Assembly (NCBI GenBank): GCA_021204285.1
Contig: JAJPZP010000045.1
Coordinates: 1,524-30,344, forward strand
DNA length: 28,821 nt
Source: Lachnospiraceae bacterium
Lineage (GTDB): Bacteria > Bacillota > Clostridia > Lachnospirales > Lachnospiraceae
Reading direction: 5' to 3'
Below, one piece after another: positions 2,965-23,890 of the stretch. The position numbers and the translations under genes were made by a program. The notes beneath the pieces are model-generated. The model was not told where the DNA came from, ran no database searches, and saw only the letters and a program-made list of their open reading frames with translations. Position 1 is the first letter of the stretch; each line of letters opens with the position of its first letter.

Positions 2965-4194
2965 TTAATTCTCCCATTCTGCTTTTGTTCCACAGATCAC
3001 ACTGTACAGACAGTCCGCGATCTGCTGATAGCCCGCGCTGTTCGGATGCACGGCATTGTCCGGCACCTCGATCGTCTCGTCCGAGTGCGGATTCACCGTC
3101 TCAGTCGTGGTATTGAAATTGTTCTCGCTGTCATGGCAGATCGCCGCCGGCACGAAATAAAGATTGTCCTCGTCCTTCAGTGTCTCCTCAAGATAGGTCA
3201 TCAGATAAAAGACTTTCTGATCCTCCTCATATTTGTAGCGGTCTCCGTAGAGCGCATAGCCGTCCGAATTACTCCAGGATCCGATCCCGTCCTGGTTCGC
3301 CGGATAGATCGTGTGGACCAGATAGATCGGCAGATCCGGATCGGTTTCATGAATATTTTCCACAATCGCGATGATATTGTCGCCATTTGGCACCGGATCG
3401 GTATCGATTCCGTTCGTCCCGAGAAAAATCTCGACCGCATCCGGAACAAATCCTGTCGTCTCCTTATAGTAAGCCCAGTCGAAGCTTTCGGTTTCTTCAT
3501 TGTAGAACGGCTGCACCTCTTCCTCCGGCTCATCCTGCGTATAGGGCGTAGCGGCCAGATAATCCGCCGCGGAAAAGCCTCTGCGCGCCTCGGTGAGGGA
3601 GCCTCCCACGCCGCGGGTACCCATATAAATAATCTCATTATCCGTCAGCTCGTTCAGCCGCTCATAGGTTGCCGTGTCGCAGGAGAGACTGTCACCGATG
3701 GTCAGCAGGGAGAAACTGTTTTCCTCCCCCTCCAGCGCCGCCACAATCTTCAGCGTCGTAGACGCAGTCGCCACCTGTGTACCGTTGTCATCAAAAATGG
3801 TAAAAATCAGCTGATAGTCCCCGATCAGCTTTTCCGTACCCGTGATCGAAAACTTCCGCGACATGTTTTTACCGACCGCACAGGTCCATTTTACATTATA
3901 ATCCTCAATCCGCGTCCCGAGAGACGACACCTGACTGTTGTAGAGCTCGATCGTCACGCCCGTAGCCACATAGATCTCATCCGGAAGGAACAGCTCGACA
4001 CTGGCGTAGAGTCCCTCATCGTTCTGCACAACACCCTTTGCCTCGAGCTGTTCTTCAAGCTCACTCACCTCATACTCCCTGGCCAGCTCATGCACCACAA
4101 GCACCGCACCAAGAAAGATACAGCAAATGCTCAGCGCGATAATCGCGCTGCGATACGCACTCCTTATCACCTTTTCCCGTTCTGCTCTCTTCAT
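2965..4194 (-). CDS. Membrane-anchored SGNH/GDSL-type hydrolase
   Basis: This is a 409-residue type II membrane protein: a basic N-terminus, one hydrophobic segment (about 16-35) and then an extracytoplasmic part. A beta-rich region (about 60-155) precedes the SGNH esterase domain. Block I is IGDSLS with nucleophile S169, block III is GTNG at 259-262, and block V is DNAVHP with D379 and H383 completing the triad. Such enzymes add or remove O-acetyl groups on wall glycans. It lies between a glycosyltransferase (9 nt upstream) and gtrA, so modification of the polysaccharide made by this cluster is the natural guess. AGAGGAG precedes the ATG. The exact ester substrate is unknown; a lipase or peptidoglycan esterase cannot be excluded. 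Confidence 0.87.
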   Translation of the reverse strand: MKRAEREKVIRSAYRSAIIALSICCIFLGAVLVVHELAREYEVSELEEQLEAKGVVQNDEGLYASVELFLPDEIYVATGVTIELYNSQVSSLGTRIEDYNVKWTCAVGKNMSRKFSITGTEKLIGDYQLIFTIFDDNGTQVATASTTLKIVAALEGEENSFSLLTIGDSLSCDTATYERLNELTDNEIIYMGTRGVGGSLTEARRGFSAADYLAATPYTQDEPEEEVQPFYNEETESFDWAYYKETTGFVPDAVEIFLGTNGIDTDPVPNGDNIIAIVENIHETDPDLPIYLVHTIYPANQDGIGSWSNSDGYALYGDRYKYEEDQKVFYLMTYLEETLKDEDNLYFVPAAICHDSENNFNTTTETVNPHSDETIEVPDNAVHPNSAGYQQIADCLYSVICGTKAEWEN

Positions 4195-4203
4195 GGCTCT
4201 CCT

Positions 4204-6096
4204 CTAAAAACGCAGGGTGAAATCCGAATAATCCAGCGAGAAATTCGGATTGTAATACGGATCGCCCGCTTCCAGGATTTCTTTCCATTTCCCGCGAAAA
4301 TGCTCGCACTCCTTCTCATAACGGCGGAGCTTCTCGCCCTCCTCGAGGCCCCTTGTCTTCGACTCGTAGTGATAGAGTTCCGCAAAAGGCGTGAAGATAT
4401 TGAGATATCCCTTCTCCCTGATCTTCAGGCAGAAGTCCACGTCGTTCAGCGAGATCGTAAAGCTCTCATCCAGTCCGCCGACCTCATCGTAGATCTGCCG
4501 CGACACGAGCAGACAGGCTGCCGTCACTGCACTCACATCCTGTGCATAGCACAGCCTCCCCATATAGCCAAGGTGCTCACGCGGCATTTTATAATGCGTG
4601 TGCCCGGCAGAGCGATGCGCCCCCAGGCCGAGAACCACGCCCGCATGCTGGATCGTATTGTCCACGTAGTAGAGCTTCGCCCCGACCGCACCGACATCCT
4701 TACGCTGCGCGTACATCAACATCTGTTCCATCCAGTCCGGCGTGATCACCTCTGTATCATTGTTCAGGAAGAGCAGATATTCGCCCTTCGCAAAGCCAAC
4801 GCCGAAGTTATTAATCTTCGAGTAGTTAAACTCACCCTCCCAGGTGACGACGCGCACACGCGCGTCCGCCTTCAGCTCCTCATAGTAATCAAAAATACTC
4901 TGCTCCATGCTGTTATTTTCAATCACAATAATCTCGTAATCCTTCCAGCTCGATCGCTCCGTGATCGACGAGATACAGCGGCGCAGGTCGGTCACATGAT
5001 CCTTATTCGGAATCAGAATGCTGATCAGCGGCGTCCCCGTGATCGGATATTTGATCTGGAAAATGGTCGGGAAAGCCCGCGTGCTCTCAACCTCCACCTC
5101 CATGCCATAGTAATCCCTCATATGATCGTGCACGGCGCGCTTCGCCGCATCAATCGCGTAGGTTTTCGCTCCGATATCCGCCGCCACAGAATTCGGATGC
5201 GAGCGCCAGTAATACAGTATCTTCGGAATATGCTGTACGTTTCTGGCTTCCTCTGTCAGCCGCAGGATCATGTCATGATCCTGGCTGCCATCGTACTCCG
5301 GCCGGAACAGGCCTGTCCTTTCAAGCAGTTTCGCGTCGAAGACAGAGAAATGGCAGATATAATTGTTCGCGCGCAGATTGTCCGGTGAATAATCCGGTTT
5401 AAAGTGCATCACGATAATATGGTCGAGATCCGGCGACTCGAAGGTCAGCTCATCCGTATAGACGTAGTCCGCGTCCTTCTCACAGATCACCTTCATGCAC
5501 TCATAGAGCGCGCTCGGATGCAGGATATCATCATGATCAAACAGACCGATAAACTCTCCCGTCGCCATCGCAAAGCAGGCATTCGTATTTCCGGAAATGC
5601 CCAGATTCTTCTCGAGCTTCTGATACCGGATCCGATTATCCGACTTCTGGTATTCCGCACAGATGCGCCCCACCTCCGGATGCTTTTCGTCGCTGCCGTC
5701 CGCAAGGCACAACTCCCAGTTCCGGTAAGTCTGCGCCTGCACCGACTCAATCATCTCCCGCAGGAAGCGCTCCGGCGTATTGTACAGCGGCACGAGCACA
5801 CTGAACCGGATACTCCGCGGAAAGACGCATTCCTCCTCGCGCTTTCTCTGCTCTGCGTCCGGGAAGCTCTTCGTCCCGAAGTCGACGCGCTTTGCAGCCT
5901 CACCGCGCTTCTGCCGCCAGCGCCGGTAGACGCCGCGCACGCCGCCGTAGTGGATATACGCCGCGTGCAGCCTCTGAAAGAAATGCACGACCTCCCGCAG
6001 CGGCTTCGAAAGCTTCCAGTACCAGGTGCCGCGCACCCGATCGAAGCGCTTGTCGCGGTACTCCGGCAGATCCGTCTGATTGGTCTCTTTACTCAT
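4204..6096 (-). CDS. Two-domain family 2 glycosyltransferase
   Basis: This 630-residue cytoplasmic enzyme has no membrane segments. After a basic N-terminal extension (1-95) come two GT-A domains. The first (about 97-330) opens FSVLVPLYNTPERFL and has DHDD at 187-190. The second (about 355-600) opens LISILIPNKD, has NNDTE at 445-449 and a likely acceptor-site block NDVDFCLKIREKGY near 553. Each carries an acidic metal-binding motif, so both may be active, building a disaccharide repeat or adding two different sugars. With rmlC in the same cluster, rhamnose is a plausible donor, but the sugar cannot be read from sequence. The ATG has AGGAGAG upstream. The gene is separated from the methyltransferase/kinase gene by a 460-bp palindromic repeat. 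Confidence 0.93.
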   Translation of the reverse strand: MSKETNQTDLPEYRDKRFDRVRGTWYWKLSKPLREVVHFFQRLHAAYIHYGGVRGVYRRWRQKRGEAAKRVDFGTKSFPDAEQRKREEECVFPRSIRFSVLVPLYNTPERFLREMIESVQAQTYRNWELCLADGSDEKHPEVGRICAEYQKSDNRIRYQKLEKNLGISGNTNACFAMATGEFIGLFDHDDILHPSALYECMKVICEKDADYVYTDELTFESPDLDHIIVMHFKPDYSPDNLRANNYICHFSVFDAKLLERTGLFRPEYDGSQDHDMILRLTEEARNVQHIPKILYYWRSHPNSVAADIGAKTYAIDAAKRAVHDHMRDYYGMEVEVESTRAFPTIFQIKYPITGTPLISILIPNKDHVTDLRRCISSITERSSWKDYEIIVIENNSMEQSIFDYYEELKADARVRVVTWEGEFNYSKINNFGVGFAKGEYLLFLNNDTEVITPDWMEQMLMYAQRKDVGAVGAKLYYVDNTIQHAGVVLGLGAHRSAGHTHYKMPREHLGYMGRLCYAQDVSAVTAACLLVSRQIYDEVGGLDESFTISLNDVDFCLKIREKGYLNIFTPFAELYHYESKTRGLEEGEKLRRYEKECEHFRGKWKEILEAGDPYYNPNFSLDYSDFTLRF

Positions 6097-6615: not shown

Positions 6616-8790
6616 TCAACGCCCGTGCCGGAGCCGGCGCAGCAGCCGCACGGGAGGCCAGTTGTAGATGCGCTCCGCCGTGCGTACACGGTTCAGCAGG
6701 TTCATGCAGGCGAAGGCCGTGTCGTGGTTCAGTTCCTGCACGATCAGTTCGAGATAGACCAGGCGTGTGCCCTCGGTGAGGGCCGGGACTGTGATCTGCG
6801 GGTCGTCGGTGGTGTACAGGATGCCCTGCGCCTCCAGTTCCCGGCCATTGTGAATGTAGTCCAGGGTATAGCTGCCGCCGAGCTCGCCTAGGATGCGTTT
6901 TATACTCACCAGACAGGGCGTCTCAGCCGGGTCAATGCGCAATGCTTTCGTCCCTTCCGGGAGAAGAAGCCGGACGCGAACGTGGCCTTCCTTGTCAGGT
7001 GCCGTGTCGATCCACCAGCTGTCGGTCTCCGTAAATCCCTCGCCGGTGTCGGCGTAAATCTGCATACGCTGCTTTCCTGCATGGTCGAGCAGATCGCTTA
7101 AACGCAACGTCCGTCCTGCCGTGTGCAGGTACTGCGCATCGATCGTCACCGTCCCCTGCAGAAGCCAGAGCTGGAAGTGGTGCTCCATCTCTGCAAAAAT
7201 CTGCTCCTCATGAGAGGAAATACCCATCTGTGCCATTAGGCCAAGTCCCTGCAGATCCGTCCTGCTGTGCAGATAAAGCGACAGCGCGCGCCAGAGCAGG
7301 TATTCGACCGGAACCTGCACCTCAAAGGTCCACTCGTAATCGATCACTTCCACGCCATGCGAGGTCTCCATCAGGTTTCCGAAAATCCAGTCGAGATTAT
7401 TGACAGGCGCTCCCTCATAGGCCTTCTCAAAGGCAGGGTCGCCAAACATTTCACAGAAACGGCTGCTCTTTTCAAACGGCATAAGCTCCGGTGTAAGACA
7501 GGCAACCAGAAACCTGCGGTAGTCCTGCAGCGCAGCGGCCAGACCCGCATAGTCCTTCTTGTTCCGCAACCCGTCGAGCCGCTCTTCAAAGGTTCGCCCC
7601 TCCAGAAACGCAAAGTATGCCGCACCGTCCCGCAGCTCACAGAGATTCGCGCGGATACCACCCGCCACACACTGACGGGCCAGCGCCGCCTCCCGGCGTT
7701 TCATATTTTCAATATGCTCCTTCGCCTGCGTGGAAACCGGCACTTTGCGCACCTGCCTTCCTCCGGCGTTCTCCAGTATATCAGTTCGAATCGACCAGCG
7801 CTCCGCGCGGTCGTTGGAATATTTTACATAGATCGGACGCTCCTGCGTCTGAGATCCTGCCACAATCAGAAAGGCATTGGCAAATTCCGGAAACCTGCCA
7901 TCGGCGATCAGCCGGTCATAGGCCTTTTCCTCGTCAAACAGCACCAGTCGCTCGCCCTCGAAATTCCGGAGATTTCGATTCAGCTCTCCGGTCTTCGGCA
8001 GCCAGCGGTCAGAGTAAATGCTCACCGGGAACCAGCGCTCCGGATAAGGATAGTAGAACACCGCCTCAGAAAGACCGCTCCTGGCAAGTATCCGTTCCAG
8101 CTCACGCTTCGTGAAGCCGCAGCCTGCGCCTTCCAGATTATCAAAGTAGACTCCGTTATGCGGATTGGCCGCGCCGGCCCAGTATTTGAGGCCCAGACGA
8201 TTATCCGCCGCAAGCACAAGATGGCCGCCCGGATTCAGGCGTGCTTTCAGCTTCTGCAGCGCCTGCGCCTGCGGATTCTCCCCCGGGAACCAGCGTCCTG
8301 CCTGTTCAAGGACAGCGGGCGCGAGGATCCAGTCAAAACCGCCGGAAAGCGCCTCAAGATTTTTCCACATATTTCCGGCATAAACATGCAGATTCTCCGC
8401 GTCGCTGTGACGCTTCGCGAGAACCCGGCAGCGGCGGGGGCGCTCCTCCAGACAGATCACCTCTTTCGCTTTTCCCAGGAAACCACCGGTCAGCTGCCCC
8501 GTATCCGCGCCGAACTCGAGCACTCGATCCGTCCCGGCAATCGGAAGCCATTCCGTCAGGTTCGCGCGCAGATGTGACAGATGATAAAGTTCTGGCCAGC
8601 CAGGTGCCTCCATACGCCGCAGATCATAGCCTCTGCCCGTGAAAGCCTCAGACTTCGCCTCTTCGGCCTCCCCTGAGGCATAACCGGCATCCACAAGCCT
8701 TTCGATCCGCTCATCCTCCGGAAATTCCTGATCATAACCCACCATTGTTTCCTCATATGTGACTGTCACGTTCCCGAACTGTTCCTGCAT
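6616..8790 (-). CDS. SAM methyltransferase fused to a kinase-like domain (WbdD-like architecture)
   Basis: This 724-residue protein has three parts. Residues about 55-245 are a class I methyltransferase with the SAM loop VLEFGADTGQL (90-100) and NPGGHLVLAADN (187-198). Residues about 310-510 read as an APH/protein-kinase-like fold: IYVKYS with K323 as the beta-3 lysine, the hinge-like YFAFLEGRTFEERL, a catalytic-loop-like LDWIFGN with D467 and N472 at kinase spacing, and VIDYEW with D484 in the DFG position. The HRD histidine is replaced by Asn. The C-terminal region (about 540-724) is a beta-rich domain of unknown role. E. coli WbdD, a methyltransferase-kinase of similar length, caps O9a chains. 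GGAGAGG lies 8 nt before this ATG; the longer start at 8823 has only a weak site. It follows wzt by 87 bp. Confidence 0.8.
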   Translation of the reverse strand: MQEQFGNVTVTYEETMVGYDQEFPEDERIERLVDAGYASGEAEEAKSEAFTGRGYDLRRMEAPGWPELYHLSHLRANLTEWLPIAGTDRVLEFGADTGQLTGGFLGKAKEVICLEERPRRCRVLAKRHSDAENLHVYAGNMWKNLEALSGGFDWILAPAVLEQAGRWFPGENPQAQALQKLKARLNPGGHLVLAADNRLGLKYWAGAANPHNGVYFDNLEGAGCGFTKRELERILARSGLSEAVFYYPYPERWFPVSIYSDRWLPKTGELNRNLRNFEGERLVLFDEEKAYDRLIADGRFPEFANAFLIVAGSQTQERPIYVKYSNDRAERWSIRTDILENAGGRQVRKVPVSTQAKEHIENMKRREAALARQCVAGGIRANLCELRDGAAYFAFLEGRTFEERLDGLRNKKDYAGLAAALQDYRRFLVACLTPELMPFEKSSRFCEMFGDPAFEKAYEGAPVNNLDWIFGNLMETSHGVEVIDYEWTFEVQVPVEYLLWRALSLYLHSRTDLQGLGLMAQMGISSHEEQIFAEMEHHFQLWLLQGTVTIDAQYLHTAGRTLRLSDLLDHAGKQRMQIYADTGEGFTETDSWWIDTAPDKEGHVRVRLLLPEGTKALRIDPAETPCLVSIKRILGELGGSYTLDYIHNGRELEAQGILYTTDDPQITVPALTEGTRLVYLELIVQELNHDTAFACMNLLNRVRTAERIYNWPPVRLLRRLRHGR

Positions 8791-8877
8791 GCCAACTGCC
8801 TCTCCACATGTGCTCATACACATTGCCTCAGAGCATCACTCTTATCCGGAGTCCGCTCACCGGCCTGTCTAAAACTT

Positions 8878-10158
8878 CTATTCCTTCTCCACCGTGATCT
8901 TCGAGTTCATATCATAGAAACCGACCGTATCTTTGTCCGAGAGCACGGTCATACCCACCAGATCATACAGTCTGTGGTACACTTTGAATTCGTCCCCGAC
9001 ATAGCCCGTGCAGCCGAGTGAAATGAGATAATCTCCTCCCTGCAGATCAATGCGCTGTTCGTAGGTCACGACACGCGTCTCACCCGCCTCGACCGTACCG
9101 GTCTCGACCCGCTCGAACATCGTGTTCGTGCCGGTGATGTCGGTTCCCTGTTTATTCCGGATCGTGATCGTGAAAATCGGATTTTTTATCTGTCCGTGAA
9201 AATAAATCTTCGCCTTCACCCGGCAGACCGTTCCCTTCTCGATGATATTGGAGAACTGCCCGTAACGGTCGATCATACAGAAGTCCACAATCTCCGCTGT
9301 CTTTTCCCCATAATCGAGCAGCGTCGGATTCGTCTCAAAGTGATCCTTCCATGCCGTGCCGTCCTGCGTATGGACACCGATATCACTCTTCCCGCTTACG
9401 TCCTCAAGCGTCTCCTCGTCGAGCTGATGGACGAGAAGCTTCTTATACATATTGACCATGTCCTTCGGAGAACCCTCTGCCAGCTTCACACCCTTGTTCA
9501 GCAGAATCACACGGTCACAGTATTTCGCGATACTGGTCAGGTCATGGCTCACGAACAGGATCGTCTTCCCGAGTTTTTTGAACTCTTCAAACTTGTGATA
9601 ACACTTTGCCTGGAAGAATACATCTCCGACCGCAAGCGCCTCATCCACAATCAGGATCTCCGGATCAATGTTGATCGCCACCGCGAAGGCGAGGCGCACG
9701 AACATACCGCTCGAGTAAGTCTTGACCGGCTGATGGATAAATTCACCGATATCCGCAAAATCGAGAATATTCTGAAGCCGCTCATCGATCTCCTTCTCCG
9801 TGAAGCCCATCATCATCCCGTTCAGATACACGTTCTCAAGTCCGGTGTACTCCATATTAAAACCTGCGCCAAGCTCAAGCAATGCCGAAATGCGTCCATT
9901 GATCTCAAGAGAACCGGAAGTGGCGCTTAAGACTCCCGTGATAATCTTCAGGATCGTTGACTTGCCGGAACCGTTGACGCCAATGATGCCGACCATCTCC
10001 CCTTCCTGCACGCTCATGCTCACATCGCGCAGCGCATAGTGCTCGCTGTAGCACTTCTGCTTTGTCAGGCCAAGGGCGTCTTTCAGACGGTCGCGGTTCC
10101 GATCATATAATTTGTAAATCTTTGTGACATGTTCCAGTCTGATCGCTGTATCTGACAT
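8878..10158 (-). CDS. wzt: Polysaccharide ABC transporter ATPase with C-terminal glycan-binding-type domain
   Basis: This is the ATP-binding subunit of an ABC-2 exporter for a lipid-linked polysaccharide (Wzt/TagH group), 426 residues. Walker A GVNGSGKST is at 60-68, the shortened signature YSSGM at 148-152 and Walker B ILIVDEALAVGD at 168-179, all typical of the polysaccharide/teichoic-acid export branch. Residues about 275-426 form the Wzt C-terminal beta-sandwich (GTVCRVKAKIYF, IKNPIFTITIRNKQG, LQGGDYLISLG). In O9a-type systems this domain binds the capped chain end before export; a plain TagH lacks this type of domain. The ATG has GAGGAG upstream. The partner permease lies 103 bp before it. 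The next gene is the putative capping enzyme, supporting the reading that this domain recognises a terminal modification. Confidence 0.93.
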   Translation of the reverse strand: MSDTAIRLEHVTKIYKLYDRNRDRLKDALGLTKQKCYSEHYALRDVSMSVQEGEMVGIIGVNGSGKSTILKIITGVLSATSGSLEINGRISALLELGAGFNMEYTGLENVYLNGMMMGFTEKEIDERLQNILDFADIGEFIHQPVKTYSSGMFVRLAFAVAINIDPEILIVDEALAVGDVFFQAKCYHKFEEFKKLGKTILFVSHDLTSIAKYCDRVILLNKGVKLAEGSPKDMVNMYKKLLVHQLDEETLEDVSGKSDIGVHTQDGTAWKDHFETNPTLLDYGEKTAEIVDFCMIDRYGQFSNIIEKGTVCRVKAKIYFHGQIKNPIFTITIRNKQGTDITGTNTMFERVETGTVEAGETRVVTYEQRIDLQGGDYLISLGCTGYVGDEFKVYHRLYDLVGMTVLSDKDTVGFYDMNSKITVEKE

Positions 10159-10261: not shown

Positions 10262-11074
10262 CTACAGGACATCCGCAAAATGTATCTTGAGCCTGCGGAA
10301 CACCCGGCTCCCCAGTACCCACAAAAGCGCCGTCACGACCCAGAAATAAACGTTCATCCAGCCAAGGCTTGGCAGGCCGCCGGTCCGGAACAGCACTGCC
10401 CGGTAACCGTAAACGATATAGCACAGCGGGTTCAGCTTCAGAATTGCCAGGATCGGATATTTCGCCAGCAGATCCTCCAGGGACCACATGATCGGCGTCA
10501 TCCAGATACCAACCTGCAGAAAAATGTTGATGATCTGTGTGAGATCCCGGAAAAAGACAACCAGCGCACTCGTCAGCATACACAACCCGGTCACAAAAAT
10601 AAGAAGGCTCGCGCTGAAGTAGAGAATCCCCAGCGTGTGAAGTCCGGGCAGATTGCCATAGAGCGCGAACAAAAGCAGCATAAAAAGCACAAAAAACGCA
10701 TGGATAAACAGTGCGGCGATCGTCTTCACCAGCGGAAGGATGTCAATATTAAAAACAACCTTTTTCACCAGATAATTGTACTCCAGGAGTGCGTTCGTCC
10801 CATTGCTCAGGGCCTCTGAAAAATAAAACCAGGGTACGATGCCGCTGACCAGCCAGAGTACAAAGGGTACGCTGATACCTTCCTTCAGCTGCGCCGTGGC
10901 GCTGTTGAGTCCGATCTGAAAAACGAACCAGTAGACCAGCACGATGATGACCGGCTGGACCATCGCCCAGAGAATACCAAAATAGGACCCGGCATAGCGG
11001 GTCTTAAAATCATTTTTCGCAAGCTTCCATATCAGCCCTCGATTTTTCCAGAAATCCCGTATCATTTGGATCAT
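10262..11074 (-). CDS. wzm: Polysaccharide ABC-2 transporter permease
   Basis: This membrane subunit pairs with the Wzt-type ATPase to flip a lipid-linked polysaccharide across the membrane. It has 270 residues, the usual family size, with six likely membrane helices. The characteristic N-terminal block LAKNDFKTRYAGSYFGILWA precedes the first helix, and the later segment FFRDLTQIINIFLQVGIWMT is typical of this family. I place the start at 11074, with GGAGAGG four bases upstream and 11 nt after the rmlC stop. A 40-residue-longer reading would run into rmlC in another frame and is unlikely. TagG, the teichoic acid permease, is related, but the neighbouring ATPase favours Wzm. Confidence 0.92.
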   Translation of the reverse strand: MIQMIRDFWKNRGLIWKLAKNDFKTRYAGSYFGILWAMVQPVIIVLVYWFVFQIGLNSATAQLKEGISVPFVLWLVSGIVPWFYFSEALSNGTNALLEYNYLVKKVVFNIDILPLVKTIAALFIHAFFVLFMLLLFALYGNLPGLHTLGILYFSASLLIFVTGLCMLTSALVVFFRDLTQIINIFLQVGIWMTPIMWSLEDLLAKYPILAILKLNPLCYIVYGYRAVLFRTGGLPSLGWMNVYFWVVTALLWVLGSRVFRRLKIHFADVL

Positions 11075-11085
11075 ACGGCCTCTCC

Positions 11086-11637
11086 TTACCGGCGCAGCGA
11101 GTGAAGGCCACCCCATTTTTGATCTTTCTCGGAGATTGTGAGCTCCATACCCTCCGGGATCGGCCATTTCACTCCGATATCCGGATCGTTCCATGCAATG
11201 CCGCCCTCATCGTTCGGATGATAGAAATCTGTACACTTATATGCAAATTCCGCATAATCCGAGAGTACGAAAAAGCCGTGTGCGAAGTTCTTGTGATTAA
11301 TATTGTGCTTCTTATTCTCTGCGGACAGTGTCACGCCAAACCATTTTCCCCAGGTAGCCGAACCTGGACGCAGATCCACGGCCACATCGAAAACCTCTCC
11401 TGTCACGACACGCACAAGCTTATCCTGCGGATAGTTGATCTGAAAATGCAGGCCTCGCAGCACACCTTTCTTCGACGCGGACTGATTGTCCTGCACAAAC
11501 TCCATGTCAATGCCGGCCGCCGCATAATCCTTATAGTTGTAGGTCTCCATAAAATAACCGCGCTCATCCCCGAATACAGTCGGTGTGATGATCTTCAGGC
11601 CCTCGATCTCACAGGTCTCTACCTTGATCTTTCCCAT
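11086..11637 (-). CDS. rfbC: dTDP-4-dehydrorhamnose 3,5-epimerase
   Basis: This enzyme (RmlC) carries out the third step of dTDP-L-rhamnose synthesis. At 183 residues it is full length. The RGLHFQ block holds R61 and the catalytic base H64, DKLVRV provides the nucleotide-phosphate lysine, the FAHGF loop is at 118-122, and Y139 in DFYHP is the likely general acid. It is the first gene of the polysaccharide export cluster; rmlA, rmlB and rmlD are not in the window. The ribosome site is weak: AAGGA lies about 13 nt before the ATG in an A-rich stretch. A promoter near 11841-11869 would give a leader of about 200 nt with a terminator-like hairpin and two further RNA structures, so regulation within the leader is plausible. 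Confidence 0.95.
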   Translation of the reverse strand: MGKIKVETCEIEGLKIITPTVFGDERGYFMETYNYKDYAAAGIDMEFVQDNQSASKKGVLRGLHFQINYPQDKLVRVVTGEVFDVAVDLRPGSATWGKWFGVTLSAENKKHNINHKNFAHGFFVLSDYAEFAYKCTDFYHPNDEGGIAWNDPDIGVKWPIPEGMELTISEKDQKWGGLHSLRR

Positions 11638-11872: not shown

Positions 11873-14176
11873 CTACGGCAGCGCCACGGCTTCCCCTTCT
11901 TCCGTCACACCGTAGAACACTCCGTCCTCCTCGTAAAAATAACGGTACCCGCTGTCATACAGCGACAAAGCCCTCGTCAGGAAATCTTTGCGACCGGTAT
12001 AGATCGTCCGGATTCTCTCCATCTTCGTTTCAAAATCCCGTTCCGCCCAGCGGCTCTCATTAATCTCCCCGTCCATCGCATAAGCCTCCAGATACCAGTC
12101 GAGTGAACGGAGTCCATCCGTATCCGTATCATCCATCTCTCCCAGCGCCTTCTCGATGGCGGGAACAAATTTTTCAGTCCATTCCTTATACACTATCTCC
12201 GCAAAGTCTTCATGACTGTAAAACTGCATCCAGTAGTCATCCATATGCATGGCGGACTGACTGGCAAACCAGCTCCAGGTGTAGTCGCTGTTTGCGGTCA
12301 GCGAGTGTTCCGCGTCCCACTCCCAGACCGCGTGCAGCCGTCCGTCCCCGGTTTTGTCCGAATCCTTATAGTAATAGACGCTGGAACTCACGCTGTTTTC
12401 CATATTCAGCTCATAGATGAGCCACTGATCCGCAAAGGATTCCAGGTCAATGTATTCCGTATAGTATTTTCCTTTTTCATTATAACCATCCTCCGAATAC
12501 AGTGCGTCCTCAAAATCCTGCCAGAACTCTGCGATATACTCCACCTCTTCCTGCGAGGCTTCGGTGATATTGCTCAACACGAAACGGATCAGCCGTTCGC
12601 TCACAAAATTACTGTCGGTCGGATCATAATCCACGTTATCCATCTCCAGAATATAGCCTCCGGTCACATCCTCCGGTGAAGCTTCAAGATGATACCAGGT
12701 CCGGGCGGCATAGCTGTCGTCATCGTACCAGGTTTCCAACTCATACAGCTCCAGATCCCAGCTGTTCACCTTCTGCGTCTCTTCCTCCAGATCCACGAGG
12801 TCAAAGCGCTCCTCTCCCACCTCGATCTTTCCGGTCAGGAGATACATTCCCAGATACTCACCCTCCACATACAGGTGCACAAACTCGGACTCTGGCGCGT
12901 AGTCCATCCCGATTTCACCGGCCAGGTCGTAGGTCACCTTATAGGCTGCCAGAGAATTACCCCGGTAACCGGCCAGCAGTACATAATTCTGAGACGAGCC
13001 GATACCGAACAGATCCTGCTCTTCACTGAATTTCAGGCCATAACTTCTCTTCGCGGCCCGCCAGGAATCATTTCCACGTCCCCGGATCCGCTCAAGAGCG
13101 CCATTCGCGAGGATCACACCGTCTGAGCCAAGCAACGTGAAGGTACCGGACGCCATATTTTCTTTATCCTCATTGAGATAAGCGACATCCGCGCCACCGG
13201 TAAGGTCCAGCATCAGCACCGGCACATTCGATGTCTCAAGGAAACGCAGCGTATACGCAATCCGGTCATGCGCGAAGGAAAGATCGGCCCCCTCTTCGCC
13301 GCACTCCAGCAACAGCGTATCACCGGAAACAAAGGTCACATAAACCCGTGACTCCAGCTCTGTACAGCCCGATGGGATTGCAAAGCACCATGCGCCCTCC
13401 GTTTCAGAATAATAAGCCTGCAGCGTCATGCGCTGCAGATCCACGGCGACGCCGATTTCAATGGAAGTGATGGTGTCCGCCTGTTTCTGTGTGAGGGACG
13501 GTTCGCCATCCTTCTCTTCCCAGCAATACCAGCCGTCCACCCCATAAGAACTGCCAAGCCCGCCGAGCTCCTGGTTCAGCGTCTCCACACTGGCCTGCTC
13601 TTCGTCAAGCGTCCAGCAGCAGTTGCGAACCTCCGAATTGTTCTGTCCGACAATGCCGTCAACCGTATTTCCATTAATCTGCGCACTGCTCGCGCAGTTG
13701 ACAATATAACCGCCAAGACTCAGCGTGGACGCGATCGCACCGCAGGTCTCGCCCGTGATGCTTCCGCCCTCGAGTTCCAGATTGCAGACAATGCCCTCGA
13801 GATTGCGAAAAAGCCCGGCTTCCGTTTCGCTCTGCAGCTCCATATTCTTCAGATGGTAGCCATTGCCGTCGAAGGTTCCCTCAAAATGAATCTCCGACTC
13901 CGTCTCGCTTCCACAGATCAGTTCCCCATCCACGCCTGCAAAATCAAGATCCGCGTACAGATTCACATACTCGTTTTTATATGTATTTCCGCTGTTAACG
14001 GAAGCGACAAATTCCAGATAGTCGTCCACTGTACAGATCTCCAGGACCAGCTCCCCGGACCCCTCCGCTGCAGATAGAAATCCCATATTTTTTACCGCGG
14101 ACGGTAAAGCCAGAAGCAATGCTCCCGCAAAAAGTATTCCCGCGATTTCTATTTTTTTCCTGCTCTCCATCCTCAT
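11873..14176 (-). CDS. Secreted CotH-kinase-family protein
   Basis: This protein of about 767 residues has an N-terminal signal or anchor (IEIAGILFAGALLLALPSAV). A GLUG-like beta-repeat region follows (about 40-200: FEGTFDGNGYHLKN, AGLFRNLEG, GAIASTLSLGG). The CotH kinase domain occupies about 295-640, with RIRGRGNDSW, SYGLKFSEEQ, the YLGMYLL strand and VWEWDAEHSL holding the metal-binding Asp. CotH proteins are atypical kinases that phosphorylate coat or surface proteins; here the extracellular setting suggests a surface or matrix target. The tail (YFYEEDGVFYGVTEEG) looks like a C-terminal beta motif. The start is uncertain: GTG at 14218 lies upstream of the promoter, while the ATG at 14176 begins one base after the predicted transcription start. 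ATG 14170 is also possible. Confidence 0.85.
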   Translation of the reverse strand: MRMESRKKIEIAGILFAGALLLALPSAVKNMGFLSAAEGSGELVLEICTVDDYLEFVASVNSGNTYKNEYVNLYADLDFAGVDGELICGSETESEIHFEGTFDGNGYHLKNMELQSETEAGLFRNLEGIVCNLELEGGSITGETCGAIASTLSLGGYIVNCASSAQINGNTVDGIVGQNNSEVRNCCWTLDEEQASVETLNQELGGLGSSYGVDGWYCWEEKDGEPSLTQKQADTITSIEIGVAVDLQRMTLQAYYSETEGAWCFAIPSGCTELESRVYVTFVSGDTLLLECGEEGADLSFAHDRIAYTLRFLETSNVPVLMLDLTGGADVAYLNEDKENMASGTFTLLGSDGVILANGALERIRGRGNDSWRAAKRSYGLKFSEEQDLFGIGSSQNYVLLAGYRGNSLAAYKVTYDLAGEIGMDYAPESEFVHLYVEGEYLGMYLLTGKIEVGEERFDLVDLEEETQKVNSWDLELYELETWYDDDSYAARTWYHLEASPEDVTGGYILEMDNVDYDPTDSNFVSERLIRFVLSNITEASQEEVEYIAEFWQDFEDALYSEDGYNEKGKYYTEYIDLESFADQWLIYELNMENSVSSSVYYYKDSDKTGDGRLHAVWEWDAEHSLTANSDYTWSWFASQSAMHMDDYWMQFYSHEDFAEIVYKEWTEKFVPAIEKALGEMDDTDTDGLRSLDWYLEAYAMDGEINESRWAERDFETKMERIRTIYTGRKDFLTRALSLYDSGYRYFYEEDGVFYGVTEEGEAVALP

Positions 14177-14183
14177 AAAATGT

Positions 14184-14212
14184 ATTATAACCCGGCCACG
14201 CCCGTTTCGCAA
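14184..14212 (-). promoter_or_regulatory. Promoter of the CotH gene, implying a leaderless mRNA
   Basis: TTGCGA (14207-14212), a 17-bp spacer and a perfect TATAAT (14184-14189) are read on the minus strand. The predicted +1 is about 14177, one base before the ATG at 14176. No Shine-Dalgarno sequence exists before that ATG. The promoter is back-to-back with the one for the plus-strand glycosyltransferase. Confidence 0.6.
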
Positions 14213-14228
14213 GCTCACCGGGGCAGCG

Positions 14229-21155: not shown

Positions 21156-21998
21156 ATGAAACGATTTTCGAAACTTGCGATACCCTACATCGCATGGGCG
21201 GTGCTGATGCTGCTGCTCCCGATGCTGCTGATCGCCGTCTACTCCTTTACGGACCAGGGCAACAGCATCATCCCCTTTACTTTTACGCTGGACAATTATG
21301 TAAAATTTTTCACCGATCCGGATTTCCTGCTGATCCTCTGGCGCTCGATCCTGATCGCGCTCAAGACGACCGTGCTCTGCCTGCTGCTGGGCTATCCGAT
21401 CGCCTATTTCATCGCGCGCTGTGAGGAAAAAACGCAGAATCTCCTGATCCTCTGCATCACCTTTCCGATGTGGATCAATATGCTGGTCCGCACCTACGCC
21501 TGGATCGGGCTCCTGAGTGAGGGCGGTCTCGTGCAGCGCGTGCTCAGCCTGCTCGGCCTCGCCGACGGAGAGCTGCTGTACACGGAGGGCGCGGTGCTGC
21601 TCGGCATGGTCTACAACTTCCTGCCCTTCATGATCCTGCAGATCCAGACCTCGCTCTCCAAGATGGACTATGCCCTTCTGGATACCAGCGCGGATCTCGG
21701 CGCGAGTCCGCGTGAGACTTTTCGCCTCGTCACGCTGCCGCTCTCCATGCCCGGCGTCGTGAACTGCATCACGCTTGTCTTCCTGCCCGCGGTCAGCTCC
21801 TTCTTCATTCCGAAGATGCTGGGCGGCGGACAGTATTTCCTCATCGGAAATATGATCGAAAACCAGTTTATCACCGTCGGGGAATGGAACTTCGGCAGCG
21901 CGATCGCCATCATCATGGCGGTCATCATGATGTGCCTGATGATGCTCGTGCGGCGAATTGAGGCACGAAATGAAGGCGGAAAGGGGGAACGGCCATAA
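21156..21998 (+). CDS. potB: Spermidine/putrescine ABC transporter permease
   Basis: This is an inner-membrane permease with 280 residues and six likely helices. The ATPase-contacting loop is DTSADLGASPRETFRLVTLPLSMPG, here split as EAA-type motif near 185-210. The early block RTYAWIGLL is typical of PotB. It begins 3 nt after the potA stop, and its own stop overlaps the potCD start (TAATG), so all subunits are probably made in step. GGAG lies 9 nt before the ATG inside the potA 3' end. Confidence 0.95.
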   Translation: MKRFSKLAIPYIAWAVLMLLLPMLLIAVYSFTDQGNSIIPFTFTLDNYVKFFTDPDFLLILWRSILIALKTTVLCLLLGYPIAYFIARCEEKTQNLLILCITFPMWINMLVRTYAWIGLLSEGGLVQRVLSLLGLADGELLYTEGAVLLGMVYNFLPFMILQIQTSLSKMDYALLDTSADLGASPRETFRLVTLPLSMPGVVNCITLVFLPAVSSFFIPKMLGGGQYFLIGNMIENQFITVGEWNFGSAIAIIMAVIMMCLMMLVRRIEARNEGGKGERP

Positions 21999-23890
21999 TG
22001 AGACAGAAGAAACGCCCGGTTGGGAAATTTATGATGGCGGCGTCCATCTGCTTTTTCTACCTTCCCATCCTGTATATCGTTATCTTTTCCTTCAATGAGA
22101 GCAAGTCGCTGACGAGCTTCACCGGCTTCTCGCTTCGCTGGTACCTGCACATGCTCGAGTCGCACGGCATGATGAGCGCACTCTACACGACCTTCAGCGT
22201 TGCGGTCCTCGCCACACTGATCTCAACTGTCGTCGGCACGCTCGCCGCAATCGGCGTCAGCAGTTCACGCAAAATCATCCGCGATCTCATGGAGCAGGTC
22301 AACAATCTCCCGATCATGAATCCGGAGATCGTGACGGCGATCGGCCTCATGCTGCTCTTCATCACCTTCCAGGTCGAGCGCGGCTACACCACGATGCTGC
22401 TCGCGCACATCGCCTTCTGCATCCCCTATGTGATGCTGTCCGTCACGCCGAAGATCCGCTCGCTCGACCCGAACCTGGCTGACGCGGCGATGGATCTGGG
22501 GGCAAGCCCCTTTCAGGCGCTGACGAAAGTCGTCGTGCCACAGATCATGCCCGGCATCATCTCCGGCGCGCTGATCGCCTTCACCATGTCGATTGACGAC
22601 TTCGTCATCTCCTACTTTGTGACAGGACAGGGGGTCAGAAATATCAGTATCCTGGTCTACACGATGAGCAAACGTGTGAACCCGAGCATCAACGCGCTCT
22701 CGACGCTGGTCATCCTGATCATCACACTGGTCATGGTGCTGGTCAACGTACTCCCGCTGATTATGAAAAAGCGTGAGCGACGGGATGAGCTGACGCCGCG
22801 CCGCATGGTCGTGCCCGCGGCCGTCGCGCTGTGCGCCGTCGTGGCTGTCGTGGCGTTTTTATCCGCCCGGCAGACGGATACAGGCCTTCCCTACGCGGGC
22901 CAGACGCTGCACATCTACAACTGGGGCGAGTACACCGGTGAAAACATTTTGAGTGACTTTGAGGAAGAAACCGGCGCGACCATCGTCATGGAAAATTTCG
23001 ACTCCAACGAGCAGATGTACATCAAGGTCGCGAACGGTGAGTCTTACGATATCCTTGTTCCAAGCGACTACATGATCCAGCGACTGATCGAAGAAGGCTT
23101 CCTGCAGGAGCTCGATGACTCCCTGCTGGACTGCTGGGACAAGCTCGACGAGAACTGTCTCGACCTCTCCTACGACCCGGGCAACGTGTATTCCGTCCCC
23201 TACTTCTGGGGTACGGTCGGCATCGTGTACGATACCACCGTCGTCGACCTCGAAGATCTGGAGGCGGAAGGATTCAATATCTTTCTCGATGAGAAATATA
23301 AGGGCGATATCTACCTCTACGACTCAGAGCGCGACTCCTTCATGATGGCGTTCAAGGCGCTCGGCTACTCAATGAACACCGAGAATGAAGATGAGATTCA
23401 GGAGGCCTACGAATGGCTCGTACAGTGCGTGCAGACGATGGAGCCGGAGATCGTCACCGACGAAATCATTGACAACATGGCGCAGGGCCGCAAGGCGCTC
23501 GGCCTGGTCTACTCCGGCGACGCCGCCTATATCATGACTGAAAATGAGAATATGGGTTTCTATCTGCCGGAGAGCGGCACGAACCTCTGGACCGACGCGA
23601 TGGTCATCCCCGCGAACGCGCAGAATGTGGAACTCACGCACGTCTTCATCAACTATGTCTGCGACTACGACGGCGCCTACGACAATTCAAGTTATGTGGG
23701 TTATACTTCCCCGAACGCGGAAGTCATGGCCGAGCTCTCCGGAGAGGGCGGCGACTATGAAGGCATCAATGCCTATCTCCCGCGCACGGACAATGAGAAC
23801 GACGAGGTCTTCGTCTACAATGAAAATACCAAGAAGACGCTCGCCAATCTCTGGAGCAAGGTCAAAATCGAGGCGAGCAACGCAAACTGA
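21998..23890 (+). CDS. potC: Fused permease and substrate-binding protein of the polyamine transporter
   Basis: This 630-residue fusion joins PotC to PotD. Residues about 1-260 are the permease, with six helices and the EAA-type loop DAAMDLGASPFQALTKVVVP. A further membrane segment at about 270-290 (VVPAAVALCAVVAVVAFL) leads to the extracellular polyamine-binding domain (about 300-630), starting LHIYNWGEYTG and containing NFDSNEQMYIKVANG, the PYFWGTVGIVYD block and DAAYIMTENENMGFYLPESG. The binding domain has no lipobox: it is tethered by the seventh helix. PotC-PotD fusions are known in some Firmicutes such as streptococci. The start overlaps the potB stop by one base. The stop lies only 3 bp from the convergent DUF4432 gene, with no terminator between. 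Confidence 0.95.
   Translation: MRQKKRPVGKFMMAASICFFYLPILYIVIFSFNESKSLTSFTGFSLRWYLHMLESHGMMSALYTTFSVAVLATLISTVVGTLAAIGVSSSRKIIRDLMEQVNNLPIMNPEIVTAIGLMLLFITFQVERGYTTMLLAHIAFCIPYVMLSVTPKIRSLDPNLADAAMDLGASPFQALTKVVVPQIMPGIISGALIAFTMSIDDFVISYFVTGQGVRNISILVYTMSKRVNPSINALSTLVILIITLVMVLVNVLPLIMKKRERRDELTPRRMVVPAAVALCAVVAVVAFLSARQTDTGLPYAGQTLHIYNWGEYTGENILSDFEEETGATIVMENFDSNEQMYIKVANGESYDILVPSDYMIQRLIEEGFLQELDDSLLDCWDKLDENCLDLSYDPGNVYSVPYFWGTVGIVYDTTVVDLEDLEAEGFNIFLDEKYKGDIYLYDSERDSFMMAFKALGYSMNTENEDEIQEAYEWLVQCVQTMEPEIVTDEIIDNMAQGRKALGLVYSGDAAYIMTENENMGFYLPESGTNLWTDAMVIPANAQNVELTHVFINYVCDYDGAYDNSSYVGYTSPNAEVMAELSGEGGDYEGINAYLPRTDNENDEVFVYNENTKKTLANLWSKVKIEASNAN

What the first reader, a model, noticed from the sequence alone, without database searches (positions are those of the whole stretch)
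6616..10158. Possible Gram-positive WbdD-Wzt capping and export pair
The gene after wzt encodes a SAM methyltransferase followed by a region with kinase-like landmarks (K323, D467-N472 at kinase spacing, D484 in IDYEW) and a beta-rich tail. Known: in E. coli O9a, WbdD methylates and phosphorylates the non-reducing end, and the Wzt C-terminal domain recognises that cap. Here Wzt has such a C-terminal domain too. Inference: this Gram-positive cluster may use chain-end capping to set polymer length and license export. The catalytic-loop histidine is replaced by Asn, so the kinase half may be altered or inactive.
Basis: partly seen in the sequence, partly recalled or inferred. Interest (0 to 1): 0.75.

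Follow-up and report, generated by a model that had tools for sequence, protein, structure and literature searches.

The report
Phosphate end-capping enzyme with matching exporter
Gut Gram-positive bacteria (Lachnospiraceae) appear to finish a rhamnose polymer by putting a phosphate on its tip and to export it with a transporter whose reader domain carries an arginine suited to that tip, a scheme worked out so far in Gram-negative bacteria.

Summary
In detail: a methyltransferase domain, an APH-like kinase fold and a beta domain, directly after a Wzt with a cap-reading C-terminal domain, in an rmlC-wzm-wzt-X-GT2 operon. First-reader landmarks exist at an offset of 11. It works like WbdD-Wzt, but kinase homology points elsewhere: to proteobacterial proteins whose residue numbering matches the Klebsiella O7 terminator ORF6 (2024), which puts methylphosphate on O3 of a terminal rhamnose. 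The doubt about the kinase is reversed: kinase residues are invariant in the alignment, whereas the methyltransferase half of this clade has lost three SAM-site features in 75 of 75 sequences. In 150 Lachnospiraceae genera, 74 of 77 high-scoring Wzt C-terminal domains have a kinase-bearing gene within 3.7 kb; the other three genomes carry one elsewhere. Among solved structures these Wzt domains are closest to E. coli O9a Wzt, and they have Arg (53 of 53 read) where the methyl-cap reader of Aquifex has Trp362; beside MT-only proteins the residue is Tyr (7 of 7). Likely function: chain-end phosphorylation that stops growth and licenses export, possibly without methylation in this clade. No biochemistry; a few exceptions exist.

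The parts
6616..8823 (-). methyltransferase-kinase-beta protein (terminator candidate), 735 aa; probable true start at M12 (8790)
7954..8598 (-). class I methyltransferase domain, residues 76-290
   Evidence: Pfam; model; homologous to the Pseudomonas/ORF6-type MT, hhalign E 1.4e-53
8503..8505 (-). D107 codon: replaces the second Gly of the SAM motif (G in the sister clade)
   Evidence: D in 75 of 75 of this clade, G in 40 of 40 of the sister clade; the two clades are defined by this residue; codon checked
7120..7932 (-). APH-like kinase domain, residues 298-568
   Evidence: model; Foldseek; VIA-align; hhalign
7375..7392 (-). catalytic loop D478-N483
   Evidence: D 79/79 and N 79/79; D 61/63 and N 62/63 in fetched loci; D478 aligns with D443 of the ORF6-like Pseudomonas protein, the likely counterpart of ORF6 D441
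7339..7341 (-). D495 of IDYEW, DFG-like metal ligand position
   Evidence: D 79/79, 63/63
6724..7110 (-). C-terminal beta domain, residues 572-700, candidate carbohydrate-binding module
   Evidence: model; hhalign 94.6%, E 6.8e-8 to the corresponding region of the Pseudomonas proteins
8878..10158 (-). Wzt: ABC ATPase with cap-reading C-terminal domain
8908..9315 (-). Wzt C-terminal domain, residues 282-417
   Evidence: PF14524; closest solved structure 2r5o = E. coli O9a Wzt CTD (identity of 2r5o)
8971..8973 (-). R396 codon in YHRLYD, aligned with Aquifex Trp362 and the O9a Arg
   Evidence: codon checked
10262..11194 (-). Wzm permease; this is the longest ORF, its start overlaps rmlC and the true start is probably further in (ORFs of 270 aa in several relatives)
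   Evidence: PF01061; relatives
11086..11637 (-). rmlC, dTDP-rhamnose pathway epimerase
   Evidence: 320 bits to an rmlC-like ORF of L054 that I named from its sequence by recall; sequence
4204..6096 (-). two-module GT2 glycosyltransferase, candidate polymerase
   Evidence: PF00535, two stretches; follows the gene in all ten relatives
2965..4194 (-). SGNH/GDSL-like protein, last gene of the conserved cluster, role unknown
   Evidence: below cut-off; present in 9 of 10 relatives, the tenth (L011) being a 3.6-kb contig

Best explanation
The cluster makes an L-rhamnose-containing polymer on a lipid carrier. The 735-aa protein is its chain terminator. The kinase domain phosphorylates the non-reducing terminal sugar, probably O3 of rhamnose, which stops the two-module GT2 polymerase encoded by the next gene. 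The beta domain may hold the glycan. The C-terminal domain of Wzt then binds the phosphate-bearing end, with Arg396 as the likely phosphate contact, and licenses export through Wzm/Wzt. Shown here: gene order, homology of all three domains to ORF6-type proteins, kinase fold and conserved catalytic residues, and tight coupling of this gene with an Arg-type Wzt domain. Inferred: the reaction, the sugar position, chain stopping, the lipid carrier and Arg-phosphate binding. Open: whether the phosphate is then methylated in this clade.
For: Kinase fold. WbdD is rank 1 for the two-domain protein. Homology to the Pseudomonas proteins with ORF6-O7 architecture: MT E 1.4e-53, kinase E 4.4e-17, beta E 6.8e-8, with D478 against D443. 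The Pseudomonas protein of L132 carries the six MT residues named for ORF6-O7 at exactly the published numbers (Y28, Y66, G91, G93, E112, Y158), the catalytic Asp two residues on, and GT motifs DxDD and NxD in order. ORF6-O7 puts (methyl)phosphate on O3 of terminal Rhap, and D441A abolishes the kinase and export (PMC11231755, section 11 part 1, section 13 part 1 and passages). Catalytic residues conserved. Coupling with Wzt_C; motif coupling. Closest solved CTD is that of O9a Wzt, whose cap is phosphomethyl. Aquifex Trp362 stacks on the methyl cap and W362L essentially abolishes LPS binding (PMC9445017 passages). E. coli O9 order wzm-wzt-wbdD-wbdA and O8 order wzm-wzt-MT-GT match the two classes seen here. 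Rhamnose genes: rmlC in the operon, strong RmlD match elsewhere in the genome.
Against: No biochemistry. The ORF6-O7 sequence itself was not obtained; its identity with the Pseudomonas family rests on residue numbers from the paper. The link to that family is a profile-profile result: a plain search with the kinase HMM gave only 21 bits with the Pseudomonas protein and nothing in the Citrobacter one. No extended coiled coil, the length ruler of known terminators, appears in the model. Exceptions: L063 (Lachnospiraceae) and L137 have a terminator-like gene near a Wzt without CTD; L135 has an ORF6-like protein near a Wzt CTD without the Arg motif; 9 of 83 kinase loci have no Wzt_C on the contig, some of them on contigs of 3 to 6 kb or at contig ends. 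The Arg motif was read in 44 kinase-neighbour Wzt of the 150-genome sample (window included) and 9 named relatives, not in all 77. Arg-type CTDs may form one lineage, so the counts are not independent events.
Confidence: 0.75

Rival explanations
1. A true WbdD orthologue in Gram-positives: methylphosphate cap made by the same enzyme family as E. coli O9a.
For: WbdD is the best whole-protein structural match; MT profiles align at 94.5%, and by that measure ours is nearer WbdD's MT than the ORF6-like Pseudomonas MT is (42.7%); same gene order as wzm-wzt-wbdD-wbdA; nearest solved Wzt CTD is from O9a.
Against: Kinase profiles 12.2% probability against 98.8% for the ORF6-type family, and MT 100% with that family; the listed nearest kinase structures are mostly APH-type phosphotransferases; His132/His133 of the phosphate methyltransferase site, 119 of 119 in the WbdD set, have no His counterpart in the window.
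Confidence: 0.07
2. The kinase region is an inactive pseudokinase and the protein acts by methylation only, or as a scaffold.
For: The HxD histidine is N or D; no Pfam kinase match.
Against: D478, N483, D495 and K360 are invariant in 79 of 79 and in 115 of 115; the equivalent ORF6-O7 enzyme is an active kinase. The residues actually lost are in the methyltransferase.
Confidence: 0.08
3. The kinase is active but phosphorylates something other than the chain end, such as a side chain or a lipid intermediate, and the link to Wzt is only operon membership.
For: The acceptor is unknown; the cluster also holds an SGNH/GDSL-like gene of unknown role.
Against: Coupling is to one subtype of the Wzt reader domain rather than to Wzt in general: 74 of 77 against 0 of 31 lower-scoring Wzt_C, and Arg in 53 of 53 against 0 of 7 beside MT-only proteins; ORF6-O7 acts on the chain end.
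Confidence: 0.1

Closest known systems
Klebsiella pneumoniae O7 terminator ORF6 (Kelly et al. 2024, PMC11231755)
   Same: MT, then an unannotated APH/AmiN-like kinase, then an Ig-like CBM; rhamnose in the polymer; ABC exporter that exports only terminated chains; GT2 polymerase modules. Profile homology of all three domains to the ORF6-like Pseudomonas family.
   Different: Gram-positive host; GT2 modules in a separate gene here (in one protein in L052); no extended coiled coil in the model; the counterparts of G93, Y158 and the YSDG segment around Y28 are lost in this clade; ribofuranose genes were not looked for.
E. coli O9a / K. pneumoniae O3 WbdD with Wzt
   Same: MT plus kinase in one protein directly after wzt; Wzt CTD with the R-x-YD segment; same operon logic.
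   Different: Kinase not recognisably homologous in sequence; phosphate-site histidines absent; beta domain instead of a coiled-coil ruler.
E. coli O8 MT-only terminator with Wzt
   Same: Parallels the kinase-less MT-plus-beta proteins beside a different Wzt CTD in other Lachnospiraceae.
   Different: The window protein has a kinase and an Arg-type Wzt CTD.
Geobacillus stearothermophilus WsaE (S-layer glycan; PMC2943079, passages seen)
   Same: Gram-positive, rhamnan, Wzm/Wzt, methyltransferase cap predicted to be bound by Wzt: chain capping in Gram-positives is therefore prior art.
   Different: WsaE is described with one methyltransferase and two glycosyltransferase domains, no kinase; its cap is 2-O-methyl.

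Membership tests
K. pneumoniae O7 ORF6-type methyltransferase-kinase terminator | homologous MT and APH-like kinase in that order | tested here: met
   hhalign E 1.4e-53 and 4.4e-17 to the ORF6-like Pseudomonas family; the ORF6-O7 sequence itself was not held
K. pneumoniae O7 ORF6-type methyltransferase-kinase terminator | catalytic Asp (D441 in ORF6) | tested here: met
   D478 aligns with Pseudomonas D443; 115 of 115 D
K. pneumoniae O7 ORF6-type methyltransferase-kinase terminator | beta/Ig-like module after the kinase | tested here: met
   hhalign 94.6%, E 6.8e-8; beta-rich in the model; Ig fold itself not searched
K. pneumoniae O7 ORF6-type methyltransferase-kinase terminator | SAM-binding residues intact (Y28, G93, Y158) | tested here: not met
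   G93 position is D in 75/75 and YSDG-like motif 0/75; no Tyr at the Y158 position in 75/75
K. pneumoniae O7 ORF6-type methyltransferase-kinase terminator | extended coiled coil | tested here: not met
   C-terminal helices of 21 and 12 residues only in the model of this protein; other members not checked
K. pneumoniae O7 ORF6-type methyltransferase-kinase terminator | (methyl)phosphate transferred to terminal Rha O3 | not testable with these tools
   needs enzyme assay
WbdD (E. coli O9a) | MT plus kinase architecture next to wzt | tested here: met
WbdD (E. coli O9a) | His132/His133 of the phosphate methyltransferase site | tested here: not met
   hhalign puts V-L-E-Q opposite V-F-H-H; among 115 sequences His occurs in 2 at position 173 and in 1 at 174
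WbdD (E. coli O9a) | homologous kinase domain | tested here: inconclusive
   12.2% probability, motif register correct; WbdD not among the listed rows, which does not exclude it
WbdD (E. coli O9a) | coiled-coil C-terminal ruler | tested here: not met
   model
Wzt with cap-reading C-terminal domain (Wzt_C, PF14524) | NBD plus Wzt_C domain | tested here: met
   E 3.9e-23 and 2.6e-36
Wzt with cap-reading C-terminal domain (Wzt_C, PF14524) | binds the modified chain end | not testable with these tools
   needs binding assay

The most novel reading that the evidence does not exclude
In the clade of the window the terminator has become a phosphate-only capper. The kinase is intact, the fused methyltransferase has lost its SAM site and serves structure or substrate binding, and the Wzt reader recognises bare phosphate through Arg396. 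One position of the Wzt reader (Trp for methyl, Arg for phosphate) would then act as a code for the cap type, reached with two different terminator kinases (WbdD and ORF6-type), in both Gram-negative and Gram-positive bacteria.
Probability: 0.35. Interest if true: 0.72.

Novelty: new variant of a known kind. Interest (0 to 1): 0.6.

Why it matters
It extends phosphate chain-end capping, established for Gram-negative O antigens, to a cluster common in gut Gram-positives (a kinase-bearing locus in 80 of the 150 genera surveyed), for which I found no account of how length and export are controlled. It yields a sequence rule for Wzt reader domains (Arg against Trp or Tyr) that can be tested by binding assays and used to predict cap chemistry from genomes. 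It also singles out a lineage in which the methyl step may have been dropped.

Tried and rejected
[quoted passage not shown] no kinase or WbdD. The VIA-align table for the full model was filled by the methyltransferase, so the kinase was folded and searched alone. WbdD is not among the listed rows for the kinase-only model; by the tool's note this does not exclude it. Pfam and NCBIfam listed no kinase for the protein. A plain HMM search with our kinase profile gave 21 bits with the Pseudomonas protein and no hit in the Citrobacter protein or WbdD; the link needed profile-profile alignment. Plasmid tblastn with the window protein gave 2 of 72,556 records, both proteobacterial; these led to the ORF6 link. 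The phylum survey gave 9 of 299 genomes (own genome included) at E<=1e-30. Of the eight other loci, all fetched, four (L133, L136, L138, L139) have an R-x-YD Wzt CTD, L135 has a CTD without it, L137 a Wzt without CTD, and L134 and L140 no Wzt of this type in the stretch (L134 has only a 42-bit ABC match at its edge). Rejected: WbdD orthology, an inactive kinase, a chance ORF.

Rows dropped before counts. In one search I left out 8 listed rows (3 extra pieces of loci already counted, 5 short MT-only matches of about 30 bits), and itself did not list all weak matches. Kinase loci were those covering more than 35% of the kinase part of the profile, my threshold. The five Wzt_C rows below the Pfam cut-off were left out. 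The split between 77 high and 31 low Wzt_C matches (about 120 bits) was chosen by me after seeing the list. In one search, Wzt ORFs up to 385 aa or with 150 bits or less to the window ATPase were not used, nor were L001 and L012 (copies of the window); only fetched loci entered: 53 beside a kinase gene (window, 9 named relatives, 43 of the sample), 7 beside an MT-only protein, 31 with neither within 7 kb. One search used 114 of the 120 listed homologues (by length) plus the window; the two clades there are defined by residue 107 itself, so only the other two features are independent of the grouping. Alignment A1 used 78 of the 120. The 31 CTD-less Wzt-like rows (open frame under 335 aa) were counted by eye from a truncated list and compared by eye; the second Fisher test re-used the numbers of the first for them.

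My notebook entry 3 calls PDB 5hno Aquifex; no call bears that out, and the report uses 6o14 (named in PMC9445017) and 7k2t/8dku instead.
Full report
What is there. The ORF at 6616-8823 (-) encodes 735 aa. The window has the order rmlC, wzm, wzt, the gene in question, a two-module GT2 glycosyltransferase and a GDSL-like gene, all on the minus strand. The same order is kept around the homologues in nine named Lachnospiraceae records (L002-L010); the tenth record (L011, 3.6 kb) shows only the gene and the GT2. The gene is single copy in its genome. The best RmlD match elsewhere in the genome is strong (296 bits), so L-rhamnose is the likely polymer sugar. One LytR-CpsA-Psr ligase candidate is present. 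The rml genes were named by similarity to ORFs that I recognised by recall in L054.

Kinase residues. In the 79-sequence alignment K360, D478, N483, D495 and E497 are invariant. In 63 distinct kinase domains from the window and fetched loci, D478 is kept in 61, N483 in 62, and D495 and K360 in 63. One of the two deviants, L056 (G010), comes from a genome without a Wzt_C match. The missing HxD histidine is shared by nearly the whole family (N or D in 79 of 79; 62 of 63), so it is no sign of decay.

Which family. WbdD is not the closest relative. hhalign of the kinase profiles gives 12.2% with WbdD but 98.8% (E 4.4e-17) with a family of Pseudomonas proteins of 1,412-1,644 aa found through a plasmid hit. 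MT gives E 1.4e-53 and the beta domain E 6.8e-8. A plain HMM search saw the kinase of the Pseudomonas protein only weakly (21 bits) and that of the Citrobacter relative not at all. The Pseudomonas protein L132:7818-12191 has Tyr, Tyr, Gly, Gly, Glu and Tyr at residues 28, 66, 91, 93, 112 and 158, an Asp at 443 that aligns with our D478, DHDD at 1011 and NND at 1268. The paper on K. pneumoniae O7 (PMC11231755; [quoted passage not shown] It shows that ORF6 phosphorylates O3 of the terminal alpha-1,3-Rhap and methylates the phosphate, that D441A abolishes kinase activity and export, and that a predicted Ig-like CBM follows the kinase. The authors name orthologues in alpha- and gammaproteobacteria and cyanobacteria and homologues in a methanogen; the word Gram-positive does not occur in the main text. 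The window protein is therefore best seen as a Gram-positive variant of this terminator type and an analogue of WbdD.

Coupling with Wzt. In 150 genomes of the family (one per genus, own genome included) the profile of the protein and Wzt_C were searched. Of 83 kinase-bearing loci in 80 genomes, 69 lie within 2.5 kb of a Wzt_C domain, 5 more within 3.7 kb, and 9 have none on the contig. Of those 9, only G076 (L063) shows a Wzt-type ATPase without CTD in the stretch, about 4 kb away; L066 has a 39-bit ABC match. From the other side, 74 of 77 Wzt_C matches above about 120 bits have the gene within 3.7 kb; the other three genomes (G034, G066, G116) have one elsewhere. None of 31 lower-scoring Wzt_C matches has one, and 5 of them lie by a protein with only the beta-domain match (Fisher p 5e-24, though the lineages are related and not independent). 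Wzt-type ATPases without CTD are common in the same genomes: 31 listed rows with open frames under 335 aa in a truncated list, none near the gene by eye. MT and kinase also occur as two adjacent genes or fused to GT modules.

Reader residue. The closest solved CTD is 2r5o, the O9a Wzt domain (E 2.5e-6 single sequence; 1.1e-13 profile against 3.1e-8 for 7k2t and 2.3e-7 for 6o14, the Aquifex domain; identity of 2r5o from PMC6286764, passages). Window R396 in YHRLYD aligns with the first Arg of O9a RRYD and with the Trp of Aquifex CYHWI, without nearby gaps; that Trp is Trp362 of the paper (chain numbering one higher; Met353 and His355 fit). Trp362 lids the 3-O-methyl pocket and W362L essentially abolishes binding (PMC9445017, passages). 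All 53 kinase-neighbour Wzt CTDs read have Arg here. All 7 beside kinase-less MT-plus-beta proteins have Tyr. Of 31 with neither neighbour in the stretch, 3 have the motif, and those are the three genomes with the gene elsewhere. E. coli O8, a methyl-cap system, has NYEWRDL; MAFFT placed D in the column, two residues past the Trp, so I read YEW as the counterpart of YHW by eye. The Citrobacter and Pseudomonas relatives have HDRRYD.

The methyltransferase half. Among 114 homologues plus the window, two clades separate at residue 107. In the window's clade (75) the second Gly of the SAM motif is Asp in 75, Tyr at 174 is absent in 75, and the YSDG-like motif is absent in 75. In the sister clade (40) these are Gly 40, Tyr 39 and motif 35; in the Pseudomonas set (120 listed proteins plus the L132 and L131 proteins) Y28, G93 and Y158 are each 122 of 122. 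Mean pairwise identity in the sister clade is MT 61.7, kinase 38.4 and beta 25.3; in the window's clade it is 68.9, 66.0 and 64.9, so the usual extra constraint on MT is weaker, though the two clades differ in depth. This suggests a changed or lost methyl transfer. It does not prove it, since the first and third Gly (75 of 75) and other MT residues (N208, Y214, G217, Y258) remain invariant.

Mechanism. Best reading: the polymerase extends a rhamnose polymer, the kinase phosphorylates the free end and thereby blocks extension, and the Wzt reader binds the phosphate end and admits the chain to Wzm. How length is set without a visible coiled-coil ruler is open. In O9a phosphorylation alone is stated to suffice to stop chains (PMC3482155, passages), so a methyl-free version is chemically sensible.

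Prior art and novelty. Methyl capping with a Wzt reader was already proposed for Geobacillus WsaE (PMC2943079, passages). In ten searches of the paper library I saw no listing that describes a kinase-type terminator in a Gram-positive; the library holds open-licence papers only, and I saw listings and abstract openings there, not the full texts. I rate it a new variant of a known kind.

Noticed in passing
L046:2197-3600, L047:3992-5371, L050:4279-5643, L096, L098, L099, L100: Kinase-less methyltransferase-plus-beta-domain proteins beside a different Wzt CTD subtype (Tyr instead of Arg); two of the three scanned with Pfam (L046, L050) have weak coiled-coil-type matches near the C-terminus; a Gram-positive parallel to E. 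coli O8.
   Followed up: partly
L132:7818-12191 and proteins P0241-P0360: A Pseudomonas-rich family of 1,412-1,644 aa, named 'glycosyltransferase' as a rule where a name is given, looks like O7-ORF6-type terminator-polymerases; all 122 aligned sequences (with the L131 protein) keep the catalytic Asp and Asn.
   Followed up: partly
window 11873-14218 (-): CotH-type kinase protein directly upstream of rmlC, kept in L002-L005 but not seen in the other relatives' stretches; a second kinase-family protein by the cluster.
   Followed up: no
L003:6964-9138: The homologous gene is split into two ORFs before the beta domain; only described, could be an assembly error.
   Followed up: no
L058:6799-9537, L060:1615-5629, L133:1-5286: Weak matches (31-39 bits) to the beta domain in other proteins, including two tandem proteins of about 485 aa, suggest a wider module family.
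   Followed up: no
window 21998-23890 (+): One ORF carries both an ABC permease domain and a solute-binding protein domain, after an ATPase and a permease gene; an uncommon fusion, to my knowledge.
   Followed up: no
L056:460-3702 (G010): Kinase domain fused to GT2 with catalytic residues changed (S, E, D pattern) in a genome without a Wzt_C match.
   Followed up: no
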